64,000 nt of DNA from Dioscorea cayenensis subsp. rotundata (lineage: Eukaryota > Streptophyta > Magnoliopsida > Dioscoreales > Dioscoreaceae): positions 868,001 to 932,000 of the forward strand of contig NC_052482.1 of NCBI RefSeq assembly GCF_009730915.1, written 5' to 3'. How positions within the stretch are numbered: the first letter of the stretch is position 1; each line of letters starts with the position of its first letter. The translations under genes and the position numbers were made by a program. The notes beneath the pieces are model-generated. The model was not told the origin of the DNA. It was given only the letters and a program-made list of their open reading frames with translations, and searched no databases. Shown here in pieces: positions 2,642 through 50,395 of this stretch.

Positions 2642-5600
2642 TCAGGAATCCTTCATCAGCTTCTCCACAACCCCTTGCACAAACAAGGAAAAGCAAGCTG
2701 AGCAGCAATTTTTCATCAGATTTCCCGGTCCGTCTTCAGAATCATGAATGCAGGTATTTGGAAGCTGAACTGGGCTCGTCACAATTTCTCTGCGATGTTC
2801 AATTCCACATGCTGCTAAAATAGTGTGGGTAGAACGTCGTGCAATATCTTTGTAAGTAGCCCGATCTTCAAATATAGTATCAGAAATAGACAGTCAGTGC
2901 CATGCAAAACTAATCAATAATGACAAGCTTTTCATATAGCTGAAATAATGAGGTGATCCGTGTATAAAAAGAAAATAACCACAGTGACTATGTATAAAGG
3001 ACAAATAGGTCTAACCTAATGTGATGTTCCGGGATAAGCTTTTCATTTGACTTCTCACCATAGATTGCACTTGTTCCTTGGCCCCATCTGCTACTCGGAA
3101 ACTACTTCCTTCATTTACTGTACTTTGCTGAATGATTGGGCCACTGTTTTGTCGGAACTGGACAGAATCTGATAAATTTTGCAGAGGATTTGGGTGAATC
3201 AGGCTGTCCAAATGCGGTAAAGGTCCCCCTCGTTGGAGTCCTGAGCTGATCACAGGTTCATGTGCCACATCTCTGGCAAAGCTTTGTCTTGATCTGTTAA
3301 ACAGAATCCGTATTCTTTGCTGTATTGCACGTCTCCCAGACAAAGTCGATGCACCGGTCCTAGGTGATTGTGAAGCACATTCATGTTCTTCCCTCCATGG
3401 ATATCTGGGTGAAACATTTAGATCAATTCCCAGAAATGGAGATTGACCCTGAGGAGTTATTGGTTGTTGGATTGTGCTGGAATGTGTGTTTCTATAATTG
3501 TCAATCCCGGAAAAGGAGAAATGACCAGATAATGGATCAGCACTGCTCGCTCCTTGATCCATGCCATTAAAAAATTGAGCATATGAAAATCCATCCTCCA
3601 TCGGCCTACAACCTTCACAGTACCAGTTGCCCTCTGGTACATCCCTTCCAAGACCAACACAATATGTATGTGCTGGGGTATCACATATATCACATAATAA
3701 CATCAAATAATCATCTCCACCTTGTTGGCATTCGACACACACTACATTCTCATAAGGATCTAGAAAGCCTCTCATCTCCTCTTCAGAAGGTTGATAAACC
3801 TTCAAAAATATCAAGAAAACATTTTAAAAAAATCAAAAAGGAAATATGCTTAAACATTTAGATGATGAGATACATGTCATGTAAACACATATGTAATTCA
3901 TGCAATTCACAACTATGATTACTACAGGTATTCTAGAATTCAAAATAATAAAAACATAAACTGCAGTGACAGAAGGAATAACCCTAATTTTTATTGCTTG
4001 TCAGAAAATTCTAAGTGAAAAATGTGCATGATATATAACTCCTAAGGTGAAACAAGAACATCAAATAGTTTGATCGTGTAACTAGGAATCTCAACAGAAA
4101 TGCTTGAATGCGTACAAATTTTAAACATCTCATTGCTGAGACCAATCTGCTTGATGTATGTATATTCATGAGGCATGACCTGAAAAATAGTACTAACTGA
4201 AATCTTAAACACAATGTGCATTCATATACAGATATACTCTGTCTCAGAAGTATTTGACACATTAGACAAGACTATGCCAAACATCAGTTCTGCAAGACAA
4301 TAACATCAACAGAAATTGCTAGCTCTAGACATGCATGGGGAATTTAACCTTCGAGTTTTCCATTTCATATCCTCATTTTTCCAATAGCTTAATCTTGTCG
4401 CTTGCCTAAGCAAATAACGACATGGACCTCGAAAAGCGATACATATCATATCATGCAATCTAGAGCTAAATAAAGCAAGCAATATGCCAAATTACCTGAT
4501 CCCGCTTTGGGACCCTGATGACAGCCCTCCTGTTCCCTAGCCCTGGGTTCAACGGCCCCCCGGACTTGCTAATGGATGCAAACCTCCTCTTGCACACCGG
4601 GCACCGGGACTCCACCTTCGACCACTCCATTATGCATGCAAAGCAGAAGTAATGTGCACAGCACTCCAACAAACCCTGAACAGTGGTCTTCTTTTCTTCC
4701 GACAAACATATTCCACAAACCTGCTTCCCTGAATCCACCTCTGCCTTCTCTTTCCCCTTTTCCTCTTCCTTCTTCTCTGCAACAATTCTCTTTGCCTGTT
4801 GTTGTTGTTGCTGTTGCCTTTGCTGTTCTTGCTGCTCATTTGATTCTCCTCCAATTCCCAAATCCCTCAACTCCTCATCCGAAATCACAAAATCGGAAAA
4901 ATCCGATTCAGAATCAGCCAACCTTGTTCTCTTTTTCCTCTCATTCTTCTTCTTCTTCTTCTTCCTCAGCCGACCTCTCCCCCTAACTTTCTCTTCATCT
5001 TCCGAAACCACGAAATCCGAAAACTCTGAATCTGAATCTAATATTCTTGATCTATTCTTCCTTCTTGGTTGACCCTTAGGTTTCTCCTTCTCCTCCTCTT
5101 CCTCTTCCTCCTCCTCCTCCTCCGAGGAAACCTCATAATCAAAATCAGAGGAATCAGAACCCTCCGCAACCAATCTCTTCCTCCTTCTATTGCCCCTATT
5201 CTTTTGATTCTCAAAAACCATACTTTGATCCTTCTCAACAAAATCATCATCTTCTTCCTCTCTAACCCTAACCCTTCTATTCTCTGGAGATTCTCCCGTG
5301 CTCTTCTTCACCTTCTTAGCATCATTCTTCGGCTTCAAAGAAGCCTTCGATCTCTTTCTCTTCGGACACGGATTCAAAACCGATCTCCTACTCGAGATCA
5401 GGCTAACCTCCTCCTCATCAACATCATCGGGATCGAAATCCTCATCCTCCTCATCATCATCATCCGAAACCCTAGCCTTCCTCGTCCGAGATCCGACCCC
5501 ACCCCTCGGCTTTCTCCTCGCCGGACCCCTTCCTCCCCGCTGCCGCCTACCACCGCTTGCCACCCCCTTCCTCGCCTTCGGCTTCGGCTTCAGCTTCGGC

Positions 5601-5833
5601 TTCGACCTCGCCCTCGCCACCACGATCTCCTCGTCCTCCGAATCCACCTCAACCTCCGATGAATCACCACCACTCCCCGAATCGGACGAAACGAAAGACT
5701 CCTCCGAGCTCTCCTCCTCCTCCCCATCCGCTCCGACGACGTACTCCTCGTCGTCGTCGCTACAGTCCTCCGCCTTCGGCCGGCCGCGCCGCCGCCGTGT
5801 CTTTTTCTGAGCAACCACCCCACCCCTCGTCAT
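2642..5833 (-). CDS. RING and PHD finger protein (putative E3 ligase / chromatin reader)
   Basis: Three exons give 781 aa: 5833-4496, 3799-3016 and 2865-2642. All junctions are GT-AG and keep frame (phases 0 and 1). Residues 1-370 are low-complexity and highly charged, with acidic, Lys/Arg, poly-Glu and poly-Gln runs, and look disordered. A C3HC4 RING lies at about 373-418 (CGIC...CAHYFCFAC...CPVC) and a C4HC3 PHD at about 467-510 (CVEC...CDIC...HTYC...CEGC). A Ser-rich linker follows. The last exon carries a conserved-looking tail (ARRSTHTILAACGIEH; CCSACFSLFVQGVVEKLM). The architecture matches the plant RING/FYVE/PHD protein I recall as Arabidopsis At3g05670. The RING implies ubiquitin ligase activity and the PHD implies histone-tail or protein binding; both are family inferences. 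The start is the first ATG. The 3016 exon end also has an in-frame stop just after the donor, so intron retention would give a shorter protein lacking the tail. Confidence 0.9.
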
Positions 5834-6450
5834 ATTACGTCCTAGTCCCTGTCCCAGTGGTCAAATTCCTAATTAAAAGTTTCTCGAGGGGTTTTCTAAA
5901 AATTTCCAAACACGCCTACACAGAGAAACTCCAATGTGATATTTTTCTAAAAAAAACCCTCAACTTCCTTAAATTTTCACGACCCATTCTATCTCGTAAG
6001 AACTCAAAGGACTAAATTATAAATATAAAAAAGCGAGGGGGTTTTCATACCTGAGAAAAAAAGAGAAGAAGATGCGCACGAACAGAGAGACGTGGAATTG
6101 AAGGTCGGGGGTGGTTTATCTACCAAAAGACTCCTCCCTTTGCCCATGAAATTACCATTATACCCTTCTTTGTTTTATGCGTATCTGCTGTTCCGCCGGA
6201 GTAGGTTAATAGGGTCGGATTGTTGGTTTTGAGGCTTTGGTAGCCAGTTGGAGAATGCCAGGTAAGTGGACTATTTTAGTATTTATTGTTCCGCGTCTAA
6301 GCGGTGTAGCCAGTGTGAATTCCAAACTTGGCTTCTGGTTTCCCATTTAGCCCATTTTGAATTTGTTTTTATTTTTTTTTTATTTAAAAAATAATAAAAT
6401 GAAAATTTGATCACTTTTTACACTATATAAAACCGTAGTTTAACATAGTA

Positions 6451-27576: not shown

Positions 27577-30500
27577 ATGCCAATGGCTTCAGAGGGTGTT
27601 TTCTCAATTTCAGTTGTTTCTGTCATGGAGGAGGTGCTCAAGCAACATGGGACAAGGCTCAGTGACATTAACTTGGCTTCCAGGAAGGCTGAGGAGGCTG
27701 GTGATTTCCCTTCTCTTTTCTATTTTTTTTTTCTTTCTCTCATTCTATTTGTAGTTTGCATTATGGTTTTTTGGTATCAAAATGAGATCTTGATGAATGT
27801 GCTTTAATTATTGACATAGAGTTGTTTGGTTTGTGTGTTTGATAACATTGCTGTAGCTTCAAGAAGGTATGAGGCAGCAAGGTGGCTGAGGAAGACTGTG
27901 GGAGTAGTCGGTGCTAAAGATTTGCCCGAGGAGCCTTCGGAGGAAGAATTCCGGCTTGGATTGAGAAATGGTTTGATTCTTTGCAATGCACTCAATAAGA
28001 TTCAACCTGGAAAAGTCCCAAAGGTTTGCTCCAAATAGACTTACATTTTCAGCTCCATGTTTGATGTGTTTATGTGGTATATATTATTGATATCATTGAT
28101 TCACATAGGTTGTAGTAACTCCTGGAGATTCAGTTCATCTTCCTGATGGTGCCGCATTGTCTGCATATCAGTACTTTGAGAATGTAAGGAACTTCCTTGT
28201 TGCTGTCCAAGAGATGGGTTTCCCTTTGTTTGAAGCATCAGACTTAGAACAGGTTTCGGTCGAGACCTTTTTATTTCTGCAATGTTTTATTTGCATTATC
28301 AGCATAGTTTCTCTGTTGTGAATTTTGATTTACTTTGTTTTATTTACATTTTTATTGATCCATGATCACCTTTTGGAGGAAATGCAGGGAGGGAAAAGCA
28401 CAAGAATTGTCAACTGTGTTTTGGCTCTTAAGTCATATGGCGAATGGAAACAAGTCGGCGGGAATGGTTCTTGGAAGTATGGTGGAAATTTGAAACCCGG
28501 CAGCTCTGGAAAATGCTCAATGAGGAGGAATTCAGAACCTTTTGTGAACTCCTTATCAAGAAATCAGTCAATGGATGAGAAATTCCAAGAACTCGAGCAC
28601 AACATCCTTGGAGAATCCAATGAAATGGTCAGTAAGCCGAAACTTTTTAGGTGTTGCTAGTTGATTTAATTCATTCATTCTAAGAATTCTCTGAATCTTG
28701 CATTACAGACTACTTCAAATTCTCTTAACATGCTTGTGCACGAAGTTCTATCAGACAAGAAGCCTGATGAGATTCCATTAGTAAGTATTCAAGCTTCCCT
28801 TAACCGATGAACTTATGTCAACCAATGCGAAGTAAAGATGATAATTCTTTTTCCTTTTGCAGCTGGTGGAATCAGTATTATGTAAACTCATGGAAGAATT
28901 GCAGCATCATATTACAAACCGAAATGAAATGGTACAATTGAACTTAGTTTAGACCAATATAAACACTAAATAGTTTTCATTGTACAAGTTTTATCAATGA
29001 CTATATGCTCCACAGGTACAAGTACCTTCAAAGGATCAAGCTGATGGAAACCGGTCTTTTCTTAAGCAAAAGGTTTCCTCTGAGCTTGTATCTGTTTCTA
29101 GTGAATCAAAGGTATTATCTTCTTTAAACATAAACATGAATTAGCATCGAATGTTATAAATTAGTGTGATTTAGTATTAGTTGCATTAGATAATTTTGGA
29201 TTTTAATGCTTAAAATGGAGGCCGAAGAAAGTAACCTCATAAAGCCAAAGAAGGAGAGTGGCTTTCAAATGATCTCAAAAGTAGAAGAGGAAACAGCATC
29301 GAAAGACAGGCTTATAAAACAGTGTGCGATATTTGATGAACAAGAAAGGGTTATTCAGGTAGTTCAACTTCAAAAATATTTTGAAAGGAAACTTTGTTCC
29401 AATTTACTATATTCTTTTTGTTTCTTTGATAGGAATTGAAACGAGATCTCTACGATACTAAATCCGGTATGAAGTTCATCCAAATGAAGTACTTCGAGGA
29501 ATGCAACTATCTCGGTATGTTAAATCAAGAAAGATATATACTAAATATGAATCATCTTGCTAATATCGCATTCTCTGTGACAGGAAAATATCTGCATAGT
29601 CTTGCTCATGCTGCTACTGGTTACCATAAAGTTCTCGAGGAAAACCGAAAGCTCTACAACCAAGTACAAGATCTTAAAGGTAATTGAGGACACTTATCTT
29701 TTAACTCTAATCACATTACACTAAATTACTTTTATAGTTTATACTAACTAGCTTCATTCTTTGTCAGGAAATATAAGAGTTTACTGTCGTGTAAGGCCGT
29801 TCTTACCAGGACAATTGTGCAGTAGCACTGTTTGTAGTATCGATGATGGTAATATTTCAATCATCACTCCTTCAAAATACAGTAAAGAAGCGCAAAGAAC
29901 ATTCAGCTTCAATAAAGTTTTTGGCCCGTCCGCTAGTCAAGGTTTGGAAAACTATAATTTATTTTGTTTTGTCCTGATATCTTTGCTATTGTTTGTATAT
30001 CCTATGATTCGATCTCTACTCTTTATGATTGTGCAGCTGAAGTTTTCTCAGATACACAACCTCTAATTCGTTCTGTTCTTGATGGTTATAATGTTTGTAT
30101 ATTCGCATATGGACAAACAGGATCAGGGAAAACATTTACAATGGTGAAGAACTCTACATAAAAAAAATCAACTTACTGAATTTAGTTAGTTGGAGAATTA
30201 TGATTTAATTTATTGTTGTTTGGCATGCAGAGTGGACCGAAGGATCTGAATGAGCAAAGTCAGGGTGTGAATTATAGAGCATTGAGTGATCTTTTTTTTC
30301 TTTCAGAGCAGAGAAGAGACATGTTTTGTTATGAAATTGCCGTGCAGATGATCGAGATTTATAATGAACAAGTGAGAGATTTGCTTGTTAGTGATGGTCT
30401 AAACAAAAGATATCCTTTTAACAGTATCATTTTCTATTATCTTTTGTCCTAATCAATGTTGAATTTCCTTTACACGTGAATACATTAGAAATACGAAATA

Positions 30501-32204
30501 ATTCGCAGAACAGGCTCAATGTGCCAAGTGCTAACTTGGTTCCTGTTTCATCAACATCCGATGTTATTGAGCTGATGAACATCGGGCAAAAGAACCGTGC
30601 AGTGGGTGCTACTGCATTGAATGACCGTAGTAGCCGCTCTCATAGGTTTGATTCTTCACACTTATCTTAGTTTCACAATTGAATTCTTTGCACTCTTGAG
30701 TTAAGTTCTTATATAAATTGATCTGCAGTTGTCTGACAGTACATGTTCAAGGAAGGGACATGACATCTGGAGCTGTTCTTCGTGGATGCATGCATTTGGT
30801 TGATCTTGCAGGAAGTGAAAGAGTTGATAAATCAGAGGTTACAGGTGAAAGACTAAAAGAAGCACAGCATATAAACAAATCGTTGTCGGCTTTAGGTGAT
30901 GTAATTGCTGCTCTTGCACAAAAAAGCTCTCATGTTCCATATAGAAATAGCAAGCTCACTCAATTACTGCAAGACTCTCTTGGTATGATCATTTCTTTTA
31001 TATTTCAATGAATAACACTAAAAAAATGAATCAACTCTTCGATGTTAATCTCTTTTACTTCTAATATAAGGCGGGCAAGCGAAAACTTTGATGTTTGTGC
31101 ACATAAGTCCTGAGATGGATGCCATTGGAGAAACAATTAGCACATTAAAATTTGCAGAGAGGGTATCAACAGTTGAACTTGGTGCTGCTAAAGCGAATAA
31201 AGAAAGCGGAGAAGTCAAGGAACTTAAGGAGCAGGTTGTTCTTCATCCATTATTGCCTTGTTTTTCCATTGCTAATTTTTATATTGTCGACGATCTTTAT
31301 TGTTCTTTGTCTTAGATACAACACCTTAAGTCAGCATTAGCAAGGAAAGGCGGGGAAGAGCATGTTCAAGTAGTGAACTCTGCACATCAAATGAACCATA
31401 GACAACCAATGGAGGATGTCGGAAACATTGAGGTAGCAATTTAGTATAAACTCAAATCAAAGTGTGAGTTCTGATCTTAGTACTTATCTATATATTTGTT
31501 GCTCTTTAGGCAAGGAGCAAGTATTCATCATCAAAACAAAAGAAACCGAGCTATGATTTTCAAGAGCTGTTATCAACGAGTGATTCGCCGCCATGGCTAG
31601 ACCAAAGTCCAAGATTAAACTTTCAGAAAGACGATGAGAGGGATATCAGTTCAGGGGAATGGGTTGATAAGGTCATGGTAAACAGAGAAGAACCTGATAT
31701 CTTTTACCAGAGATTTTTACATGATACAACCGGCATTGGCGATCAACAACAATCTTTAAATGCTGCTAGAAGAAAAGGTAGCTATGACTTCGACATGCAA
31801 AGAAATCGGTTTGATTTTGCAATGACTGATGATTCAGATGAATTGGATATGGAGACAAGTGATTCATCTGAAGCAGACATGCTATGGCAATTCAACATCC
31901 CACAAGTTGGTGCTGCAAGTTGCGGTGTGTCAAAGATCAAGAAGCCTCATCCAAAGGCGGCAAAGAGCCCGGATATAAGGTAATAGTGTCTTTTGAATTA
32001 TAAGACATAAACATCAATAAGATCATGAAATCATTTAAGCTTTTGTGATGTAGGACACCAATTCAATCACACATACCACCTCCGTCGCAGAAAAATTCAA
32101 GTGGTTCCGGTCATGCAGCAAACCGGGCAGTAAGGCACACTATTTCCGGCAGCAATGACAGTAAACGAGGCTCGTCCGGTGGAAAGATGGGAAATATGAA
32201 GTAG
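27577..32204 (+). CDS. Kinesin-14 with calponin-homology domain (KCH type)
   Basis: Nineteen exons give 1001 aa: 27577-27700, 27857-28023, 28109-28252, 28388-28627, 28709-28780, 28863-28931, 29016-29111, 29221-29358, 29433-29514, 29584-29679, 29768-29941, 30037-30143, 30231-30409, 30484-30645, 30729-30982, 31071-31234, 31316-31432, 31510-31979 and 32054-32204. All phases agree. A CH domain lies at about residues 43-165 (actin/microtubule binding). A linker with coiled-coil potential follows, then the motor at about 410-735 after the kinesin-14 neck [13 protein letters not shown]. The P-loop GQTGSGKT is at 493-500, switch I NDRSSRSH at 609-616 and switch II DLAGSE at 642-647. The tail is Ser/Asp-rich. 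A motor C-terminal to its neck implies minus-end-directed movement. The protein tracks the Arabidopsis CH-kinesin I recall as At2g47500. A second in-frame ATG (27583, MASEGVFS) matches homologue starts better and would give 999 aa. The intron after exon 13 is AT-AC; the exon 8 acceptor (29219-29220) has a weak pyrimidine tract. Confidence 0.95.
30410..30483 (+). other. U12-type AT-AC intron of the kinesin-14 gene
   Basis: Exon 13 ends ...AACAAAAG with no GT available. The next bases are ATATCCTTTT, the exact U12-type 5' splice site. TTCCTTTAC at 30465-30473 matches the U12 branch consensus with one change, putting the branch A at 30472, 11 nt from the 3' end. The intron ends AC at 30483. Joining gives AG|A = Arg and continues N-K-R-L-E-I-R-N-N-S, which agrees with kinesin-14 homologues. 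The intron is 74 nt. Any GT-AG alternative would break the frame or drop conserved residues. Confidence 0.9.
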
Positions 32205-47906: not shown

Positions 47907-48992
47907 TTACCGGGAGTTGGCGGTGGGACCGTACAGGTCGTAGGGGGCCCACAAAGCGTCTAGGGGGCATGGGTTGTTGGAATCGAGACGAGCCCAAGGC
48001 TTGCCGCTGCCGCTCCAGTGAAGGAGGCTGACCGGCCCCGGATGGAGATCCCGGCAGCTGCCCTTCACGTTGTCACCGCCGAGACCGTGCTGGTTCCATC
48101 GGTGCTCGATGGGCGCCACGTGTCCTGCGAAAACGAGAAGGAACGGTGGAAGAGAACCGAGCTCGTAGATCCGACCGGCTGAGCCGGTGCCGCCGAGCTT
48201 TTGAATTTCCATCCACTTCTCGATGCTTCTCGTGAACCCTGATTTCCGCCATTGATGGAGATCGATGACCATCACGCCGGTGTTGAAGTAGCACGGCCGG
48301 CGGCCGGAGAAGGTTCCGGCGAGGTGGGGATCCGACCAGAAGCGATTGGTGAAGTATTTGGTGAAGTTGGCGTGGCAGTACTCGGGTGCGCCGATGGCGC
48401 GTGAGCCGAGACTTGTGCGCCAGAGCTTGGCGACGTCGTCGACGAGGATGAGATCGGAGTCGAGGTAGATGACACGGCGGACGCAGGGCTCGAGGAGGTC
48501 GGCGAGGTAGTTGCGGGCGTAGTTGAGGGGTTGCTCGAGCGCGGAACGAACGGAGGTGGAGATGAGATTGCGGACGCGGTCGGGATCGAAGTAGTAGACC
48601 TTGAAGTGGAGATCGGGGAAGGCGGAGCGGACTACGGTTTCGAGCTTTGGTTCGGAGATGAGGAAGTGGAAGAAGATGCTCTCCGGGCAAAGGGCGTGCT
48701 GGAGTACGGAATGGACGGCGGCGATCGAGCCGCGGAGGTAGTCTTCATCGAGGGTTATCGCGATATGGACGAGAGATGGCTCGCAGATGGTAGTGTTCTC
48801 GTCGATTCCAGCGCCGCATTCGGCGGCATTGCGGAACGCCGGGGCTTGCCGGAATGAGAACCGGTCCGGCGAGGCGAACCGGCGAGGCGATCGGATGGCT
48901 TCGGCGGGGGGAAAGGATTGAAGGGATGGGAATAGGATAATGGTGAGCAAAGCGGCGGCGAAGAAACCGGAGATCCTCATGATCCACTGCAT
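47907..48992 (-). CDS. Galacturonosyltransferase-like protein (GATL, GT8 family)
   Basis: This is an intronless, very GC-rich 361-aa gene. The N terminus [16 protein letters not shown] onward is a signal-anchor or signal peptide. The start is the first ATG; the open frame runs further upstream but without an ATG. GT8 motifs are present: [35 protein letters not shown], the DxD metal/UDP-sugar site in [36 protein letters not shown] and [11 protein letters not shown]. The ending ([13 protein letters not shown]) matches plant GATLs, closest by memory to the GATL5/6/7 group. GATLs act in Golgi/ER synthesis of cell-wall polysaccharides (xylan or pectin). Their exact transferase activity is not settled. 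Base composition differs sharply from neighbouring DNA; bimodal GC of this kind is typical of monocot genes. Confidence 0.95.
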
Positions 48993-49900
48993 CCTCCGCT
49001 GCCGATCACCGCCGGCGGATTTCCTCCGGCGACGGCGGCGGGGATTGAAGTCAAAGAGATCGGCGAGAAGGAGAAACCCTAGTGTTGTTCCCTTCACCAC
49101 CGCCAGCGTGGTGGGAGGGGGTGATTGTAAGGAGGCGGTGATGGTATCGCCCGGTCTTCAGGGTTTGGATCGCTTAGGAAGCAAGCAAAGTCGGCGCGAA
49201 TCCAAAGAGAAACCCGTTGGAGGCTTGACCACCCCGATAACGGCACTCGCGGTACGCTTCTCCGCCCTTAACTCCTCTTTCTCTTCACTTTTCTTCCGCG
49301 CTTCAGCTCCTCTTTGGTCTTCTTCTTCTTCTTCCGCTGCCGCAGCGAACAACAAAACAGGTACATATTCCCGATAACTCCTGTTTTTTTTTTAAATTTT
49401 ATTTTTAAGTAATTAAATTGCTTATTTCCATTAATTTTTTACTAATTATTAATTAGTATTATATAATGAGGGATTTGTCATCGCGAGAGTTGTAGTATAA
49501 GGGTAGAAAGGTAAATTTAGGGAGGAGGTTGACACGTGGAGAGAATCTAGGGGTGTTTGTACGGGAGCGGTCAGGATGATCTCACACTGATAATAGTGTG
49601 GGGCGTCGTATGGCCGTCTCATCGCCGACAGTGTCTGGCCTCTGTGCCTCGGGATATGTACTGCCGAGGATCAACAGCTGGCTCGCACTTTAGCATTGAA
49701 GTGGCGGGAAAAACTTGCGGGTTTTTTCATCCTGGCTGAAGTTTAAATTCTGTTTGCTTCGTGGATATCCAATAGGAGATTGCCACCTGGCGTCCTAGAT
49801 GAAAATGTGCCTACGTGTCAGTTTCCCCTTGGAATTGTGATTAATTATCGGTAATTAAAGGATTTTATGGGAGAAATCACTGGTAATGACCACTAAATAC
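48993..49900. promoter_or_regulatory. GATL leader and promoter region
   Basis: GC-rich, purine/pyrimidine-biased leader runs to about 49370 (an uninterrupted antisense-looking frame is only a by-product of composition). A G-box GACACGTGG lies at 49531-49539 and ACGT-core ctacgtgtca at about 49812. The segment 49545-49740 is unusually GC-rich and unique compared with the AT-rich DNA beyond it and may be regulatory. No gene is recognised. Confidence 0.45.
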
Positions 49901-49924
49901 TAAAGTGGTTAGACTTAAAAATCT

Positions 49925-50395
49925 TGCCTTTTGTGATACTTAGCACTGTTTAATATACTATGGGTCGTCAGTACTATTTAATGGTGACAGTGTGAGTTCT
50001 CTACCATAGAAATAATTTTTTTTTTTTCTTTAAAATTGTATGATAAAAAGATTTATTTCTACATAATCATTAAGTTATTGTAATTGGTACTTCAATATGA
50101 CATTGTATATTATAGAACAGTATTATTTTATGGTCAAGGTGTGAGTCTTTTATAAGAAAAATAGTATTTTTTTACTCCTTCAGAATTATATGTCATAGAG
50201 ATTTATTTTTAAGAGTTCAGGTTTTAAACTCTCATAATTGGTACTTAGTACTGTTCACACATTATATATTATGGGTCATTATTATTTGATGATCATAGTG
50301 TGAGTCCCTTATAAAAAGAACAATAGTTTTTTTACTCTCAAAAGTTACATAATAAAGATATTTATTTATAGGGGTCGTTAAACTATCATAATTAG
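49925..50395. repeat. Three-unit diverged tandem repeat (~150-160 bp)
   Basis: Units centre on gtgtgag(t/g) at 49991, 50140 and 50299. Each has (a)ttggtactt-a, a tatta(t/g)gg..c-gtattattt-atggtca patch, then tttttttactc, a(t/g)aaagatttattt and taa-ct-tcataattggtac. They are diverged, so old. Single related pieces appear near 36930 and 53535. Confidence 0.65.

What the first reader, a model, noticed from the sequence alone, without database searches (positions are those of the whole stretch)
30410..30483. U12-type AT-AC intron inside the kinesin-14 motor domain
The donor ATATCCTTTT, branch site TTCCTTTAC 11 nt from the end, and terminal AC all fit the minor spliceosome, and only this splice gives the conserved KRLEIRN junction. 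AT-AC introns are rare, and automated gene callers usually mis-model them (losing the frame or skipping an exon). It makes expression of this motor dependent on U12 splicing.
Basis: partly seen in the sequence, partly recalled or inferred. Interest (0 to 1): 0.7.

Follow-up and report, generated by a model that had tools for sequence, protein, structure and literature searches.

The report
Rare-class intron in plant kinesin gene
A plant kinesin motor gene carries what is almost certainly a rare-class (AT-AC, U12-type) intron; six sister genes in the same genome share it, while some more distant kinesins have an ordinary intron at the same spot.

Summary
Confirmed from sequence. At 30410-30483 lies a 74-nt intron with U12-type AT-AC signals, in the motor domain of a calponin-homology (CH) kinesin-14. 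The donor motif alone is at chance level (1 seen, 2.64 expected); the donor-branch pair is not (0 of 100 shuffles, pattern set after seeing the site). The strongest evidence is conservation: of 10 loci found with the upstream exon, 7 including the window start ATATCCTTT(T/C) and end AC at the same codon and phase; intron lengths in the six measured run from 74 to 244 nt. The genome has U11, U12 and U6atac genes above Rfam cut-offs. Two refinements. First, the branch site TTCCTTTAC lacks the purine before the branch A, so "all fit" is slightly too strong and splicing may be slow (prediction only). Second, five other kinesin-14 genes have GT-AG introns at the same or nearly the same position, so intron class appears to have changed within the family, direction unresolved. 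No RNA data and no other plant genome were available. Ordinary as a kind; modestly interesting as a within-genome class difference.

The parts
30410..30483 (+). U12-type AT-AC intron, 74 nt, phase 2
30410..30419 (+). 5' splice site ATATCCTTTT; 8 of 8 match to TATCCTTT at +2..+9
   Evidence: the first nine bases are ATATCCTTT in all 7 AT-AC introns, the tenth is T in 5 and C in 2
30465..30473 (+). branch site TTCCTTTAC, 8 of 9 match to TTCCTTRAY; putative branch A at 30472, 11 nt from the intron end
30482..30483 (+). 3' splice site AC
30450..30452 (+). in-frame stop met if the intron is retained (...[15 protein letters not shown])
   Evidence: (ORF 30204..30452)
30231..30409 (+). upstream motor exon, ending ...SDGLNKR, 179 nt
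30484..30645 (+). downstream motor exon (LEIRNNSQ...NDRSSRSH), 162 nt
29768..31234 (+). motor-domain part of the gene: six exons and five introns, of which only 30410-30483 is not GT-AG
   Evidence: Pfam Kinesin PF00225, 369.5 bits
27868..28023 (+). exon with the first part of the calponin-homology domain of the same gene
   Evidence: C12:895868-896023, window offset 868000; Pfam CH, 56.8 bits, on the joined CH exons

Best explanation
It is a genuine U12-dependent AT-AC intron, inherited from the common ancestor of a clade of internal-motor kinesin-14 genes that includes the CH-domain ones. Shown from sequence: ends, donor, branch-site spacing, junction and conservation in seven paralogues. 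Inferred: U11 and then U6atac pair with the donor, U12 pairs with the branch region, and the minor spliceosome removes the intron. If it is not removed, translation stops 13 codons after the split arginine codon, before the SSRSH and DLAGSE motifs of the motor, so no working motor is made. Skipping both flanking exons (341 nt) would shift the frame. The branch site lacks the purine that normally precedes the branch A, so splicing of this gene and its two closest paralogues may be slow.
For: Sequence and junction. Seven of ten loci with ATATCCTTT(T/C)...AC at the same codon and phase. In six of these seven, those with equal loop length, the best protein junction allows AT-AC in 6 of 6. Donor-branch pair in 0 of 100 shuffles. 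Five neighbouring introns of the gene are GT-AG and match the U12 donor at 1-4 of 8 positions, against 8 of 8 here. U12, U11 and U6atac RNAs above Rfam cut-off. The genome's own U6atac (AAAGGAGA) and U12 (GTAAGGAA) can pair with donor and branch region. Independent of any splice choice here, the solved chains of KIFC3 and KCBP read through the junction as ...EKLEIR and ...LKLEIKKDS, and the genome's own KCBP-type gene, which has no intron at this place, reads ...PRLEIKKDS.
Against: No transcript data. The branch site has one mismatch, and in the lowest-energy computed duplex with U12 a U, not the branch A, is bulged. The donor motif alone is at chance level. The motif pair is not clearly enriched genome-wide. 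The reference loops used for scoring were themselves read with this junction, so that test is partly circular. The U4atac model found nothing, but it rang nowhere else and the output calls this uninformative. A U11-48K zinc-finger match (39.7 bits) is weak support, because the same model also rang over its cut-off in an archaeal control.
Confidence: 0.96

Rival explanations
1. A GT-AG (U2-type) intron is used here: 30424-30488 (giving KRYPFNKIRN) or 30372-30508 (deleting 21 residues around RDLL...RNNSQ).
For: Both keep the frame open, and 30372-30508 has good-looking U2 sites.
Against: The first inserts YPFNK in place of RLE, the second removes the conserved RDLL and KRLEIRN; both go against the paralogues and the solved relatives. 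Neither explains why ATATCCTTT and the terminal AC are kept in seven genes.
Confidence: 0.02
2. The AT-AC intron is spliced by the major (U2) spliceosome.
For: Such introns are reported (a passage of PMC6310983 seen).
Against: The full U12 donor, the U12-like branch site close to the end and the genome's minor snRNAs favour U12.
Confidence: 0.02
3. Evolution, version A: the position was U12-type in an ancestor of kinesin-14 and turned U2-type in the genes L060, L061, L070 (labelled 'mdk' in my tree; the label is recalled) and in L088/L089.
For: Conversion is thought to run almost only from minor to major (passages of PMC2831892, PMC7367187, PMC10639083), and PMC2426677 argues for much U12-to-U2 conversion in plants (passages).
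Against: On the rough tree it needs one or two conversions, the opposite direction one. AT-AC introns convert rarely: 5 of 79 single-subtype clusters in PMC2831892.
Confidence: 0.6
4. Evolution, version B: the introns in the different clades are independent insertions at the same site.
For: The KCBP-type (L067) and ATK-type (L073) genes have no intron here.
Against: Same codon and phase 2 in four further genes (L060, L061, L070, L081/L088); L085/L089 fits with a one-residue shift (read by eye).
Confidence: 0.2

Closest known systems
U12-type AT-AC introns of plants, e.g. the CBP20 U12 intron (PMC5932401, passages)
   Same: AT-AC ends, TTCCTTRAY-like branch site, one such intron among U2-type ones, position kept in related genes
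   Different: Here in a kinesin motor domain; the branch site has T in place of the purine (TTCCTTTAC); shared across seven paralogues of one genome, whereas CBP20 was compared across species
U12/U2 class-switched intron positions (PMC2831892, PMC7367187; passages)
   Same: Same position and phase, different spliceosome class
   Different: Seen here among paralogues of one genome, and between AT-AC U12 and GT-AG U2, the less common combination
KCH kinesins: CH-domain kinesin-14 (PMC5852081, passages)
   Same: CH domain followed by an internal kinesin-14 motor; the paper gives at least 7 in Arabidopsis
   Different: Of the 7 AT-AC genes here a CH exon was found near 5, not near the C17 and C20 genes

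Membership tests
U12-type AT-AC intron | AT...AC ends giving the conserved protein junction | tested here: met
U12-type AT-AC intron | donor ATATCCTTT | tested here: met
   8 of 8 at +2..+9
U12-type AT-AC intron | branch site TTCCTTRAY close to the 3' end | tested here: met
   8 of 9, T at the R position; branch A 11 nt from the end. Met with one deviation
U12-type AT-AC intron | minor spliceosome in the genome | tested here: met
   U12, U11, U6atac (control 0 of 14 each). U4atac model uninformative. U11-48K finger found but the model also rings in an archaeal control
U12-type AT-AC intron | signals conserved in related genes | tested here: met
   7 of the 10 loci are AT-AC at the same position; the other 3 are GT-AG
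U12-type AT-AC intron | spliced in vivo by the minor spliceosome | not testable with these tools
   no RNA data
kinesin-14 with CH domain (KCH) | kinesin motor and CH domain in one gene | tested here: met
   PF00225 369.5 bits, PF00307 56.8 bits; one search places the CH exon 5' of the motor on the same strand
kinesin-14 with CH domain (KCH) | closest solved relatives are kinesin-14 | tested here: met
   KIFC3, KCBP, KIFC1, Kar3 and Ncd head the list (that these are kinesin-14 is recalled)

The most novel reading that the evidence does not exclude
The AT-AC intron arose by conversion of an ordinary U2-type intron at the base of this kinesin-14 clade, a direction regarded as nearly forbidden, and has since been kept in all seven copies found.
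Probability: 0.15. Interest if true: 0.6.

Novelty: new member of a known kind. Interest (0 to 1): 0.27.

Why it matters
It points to a set of seven plant motors likely to need the minor spliceosome, a possible link between minor-splicing mutants and defects in cell division or cytoskeleton. It also gives a within-genome set (seven AT-AC, five GT-AG at one position or very nearly so) for testing the direction of intron class switching. For annotation, all seven genes need an AT-AC splice in the middle of the motor.

Tried and rejected
The motif alone as proof was rejected: the donor is at chance level in the window and motif pairs are near their controls genome-wide. The seventh AT-AC gene (C7), whose loop differs in length, and the GT-AG genes were read by eye. 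Relatives outside this genome: none confirmed in viral contigs (1 pattern match) or genome contigs (26 pattern matches); no other plant genome is held. U4atac: no hit, uninformative. No Rfam family was found in the window itself. Direction of class switching: the tree (19 genes) was built from rough motor alignments (stitched tblastn pieces; C12c fills 217 of 336 columns) and does not resolve which kinesin-14 clade branches first (support 0.343 and 53 at the relevant nodes). In the kinesin-13 gene L068 an intron of the same phase lies within one codon of the site, but the alignment there is ambiguous and kinesin-13 genes were not counted. Papers: the searches showed none that ties this intron to kinesins, but searches listed only 25 of 159, 40 of 283 and 15 of 310 papers. 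Of the listed papers holding both kinds of words I looked at passages of five (PMC6359015, PMC9865405, PMC8547070, PMC10161547, PMC7808418), none of which makes the link; PMC13115098, PMC4394429 and PMC11709435 were not opened. Word counts of 'kinesin' were 0 in PMC2831892, PMC2426677, PMC6310983, PMC4892727, PMC7367187 and PMC5932401. Databases and supplements (U12DB, ERISdb) could not be read; I expect, from recall only, that Arabidopsis copies are listed there. Lewandowska 2004 and the DOI that I tried, from recall, for an Arabidopsis U12-intron survey are not held; Lewandowska is cited through passages of PMC5932401.

Full report
WHAT IS THERE. The window is C12:868001-932000 of a 584 Mb genome; that it is a plant is my inference from its genes (CH kinesins, which PMC5852081 calls exclusive to land plants; passages). 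The gene on the + strand, with recognised exons from about 27.8 kb to 32.2 kb, encodes a CH domain followed by a kinesin motor. Seven exons from 29768 to 31432, spliced by hand, read without a stop. Of the six introns between them five are GT-AG and one, 30410-30483, is AT-AC.

IS IT MORE THAN CHANCE. The donor 9-mer alone is not: RTATCCTTT occurs once in the window with 2.64 expected. Donor plus branch site is: once, with none in 100 shuffles, though the pattern was set after seeing the site. Over the whole genome a similar pair is found 14 times against 8 for the reversed control, and a stricter one once against none; both ask for a purine before the branch A and so cannot match this intron. 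The motif pair is thus weak evidence by itself. The protein junction is stronger: of 88 frame-keeping pairs in six dinucleotide classes only 30410/30483 gives NKRLEIRN, which agrees with solved relatives and with the genome's own intronless KCBP-type reading PRLEIKKDS.

PARALOGUES. A search with the upstream exon found 10 loci. Seven (C12 = the window, C19:30689, C6, C8, C17, C20, C7) start ATATCCTTT followed by T (5) or C (2) and end in AC, at the same codon and phase. In the six whose loop has the same length the best-scoring protein junction allows AT-AC in 6 of 6; sliding-equivalent readings are TA-CA in all six and AT-AT in four, and the reference loops were themselves read with this junction, so the test is partly circular. 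Intron lengths in these six are 74, 151, 228, 244, 234 and 98 nt, so the ends are kept while the lengths differ. The other three loci (C4:3916, C15, C19:29200) have GT-AG introns at exactly the same position with donors unlike U12 (GTAAGCCCAT, GTAGCCTACA, GTAAAAATCT).

WIDER FAMILY. Pfam Kinesin gave 162 matches in the genome, not all listed; I grouped the listed ones by eye into about 61 places. By eye the 29 fall out as: AT-AC at the position 7; GT-AG at the position 5 (the three above, L081/L088, and L085/L089 with a possible one-residue shift); kinesin-13 with an intron nearby 5, of which only L068 was followed at base level; no intron at the position 10 (L059, three kinesin-5, L067, L069, L073, L083, L084, L086); an intron nearby in another phase 1 (L087); not settled 1 (L062). 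On a rough tree of 19 genes the seven AT-AC genes form one clade (ultrafast bootstrap 100, SH-like 0.992). A search with the CH exon gave six matches: five lie 5' of AT-AC kinesin genes (C12, C19, C6, C8, C7); the sixth, on C17, is not near the C17 kinesin, and none is near C20.

MACHINERY. The genome has one U12 (96.1 bits), one U11 (71.8) and four U6atac (44.1-87.0) matches over Rfam's cut-offs. A U11-48K zinc-finger match is present, but that model also rang over its cut-off in an archaeal control, so it counts for little. The U4atac model rang nowhere. The U6atac AAAGGAGA and U12 GTAAGGAA can pair with the donor and branch region.

BRANCH SITE. The site is TTCCTTTAC, not TTCCTTRAY. The C19 copy shares it and the C6 copy reads TTCCCTTTAC with an extra C; C8 has TTCCTTGAC, and C17, C20 and C7 have TTAAC at the end of the motif. 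[quoted passage not shown] Against a weak site, computed pairing energies to U12 are -7.9 here and -7.9, -7.7, -7.6, -11.3, -6.2 and -5.4 for C19, C6, C8, C17, C20 and C7: the copies with the proper purine are not consistently stronger. In the computed duplex here a U is bulged and the branch A is paired. Slow splicing of this gene is a prediction only.

HOW IT WORKS. Inferred: removal by the minor spliceosome is needed for a working motor. Retention gives ...[15 protein letters not shown] and a stop at 30450-30452, before the NDRSSRSH and DLAGSE motifs. Skipping both neighbouring exons (179 + 162 = 341 nt) shifts the frame (lengths).

EVOLUTION. The same position holds AT-AC U12-type introns in one clade and GT-AG U2-type introns in genes of two others. 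Papers seen in passages hold that conversion runs almost only from minor to major (PMC7367187; PMC10639083), that it is rare for AT-AC (5 of 79 single-subtype clusters) and that one reverse case was found in flies (PMC2831892). The present tree is compatible with both directions, so I favour the usual one on prior grounds.

RARITY. AT-AC makes up about 0.06% of splice sites over 121 plant genomes (PMC6310983, passages), so rare but of a known kind.

Noticed in passing
L018 (C8:7733679-7733801 and around): A stray partial copy of the kinesin-14 exon that follows the AT-AC intron lies just downstream of what looks like the 3' end of the C8 gene, without the rest of the motor next to it: apparently a local duplicate fragment (read by eye).
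   Followed up: partly
L080 and L082 (C5:23680820-23681500, C5:23492850-23493560): Two very similar kinesin-13 fragments about 187 kb apart on opposite strands, each with an in-frame stop in the SSRSH region: probable pseudogene duplicates.
   Followed up: no
G000:C17:9536252-9536404: A CH exon like that of the CH kinesins with no kinesin-14 motor match near it.
   Followed up: no
L065 intron (C6:20962416-20962643): Branch site TTCCCTTTAC with an extra C and no upstream purine, the only one of the seven with both deviations.
   Followed up: partly
window 48001-50000 and 4001-6000: A GC-rich stretch (0.535, neighbours 0.307 and 0.267) and a stretch with strong negative GC skew (-0.409) in the composition profile.
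   Followed up: no
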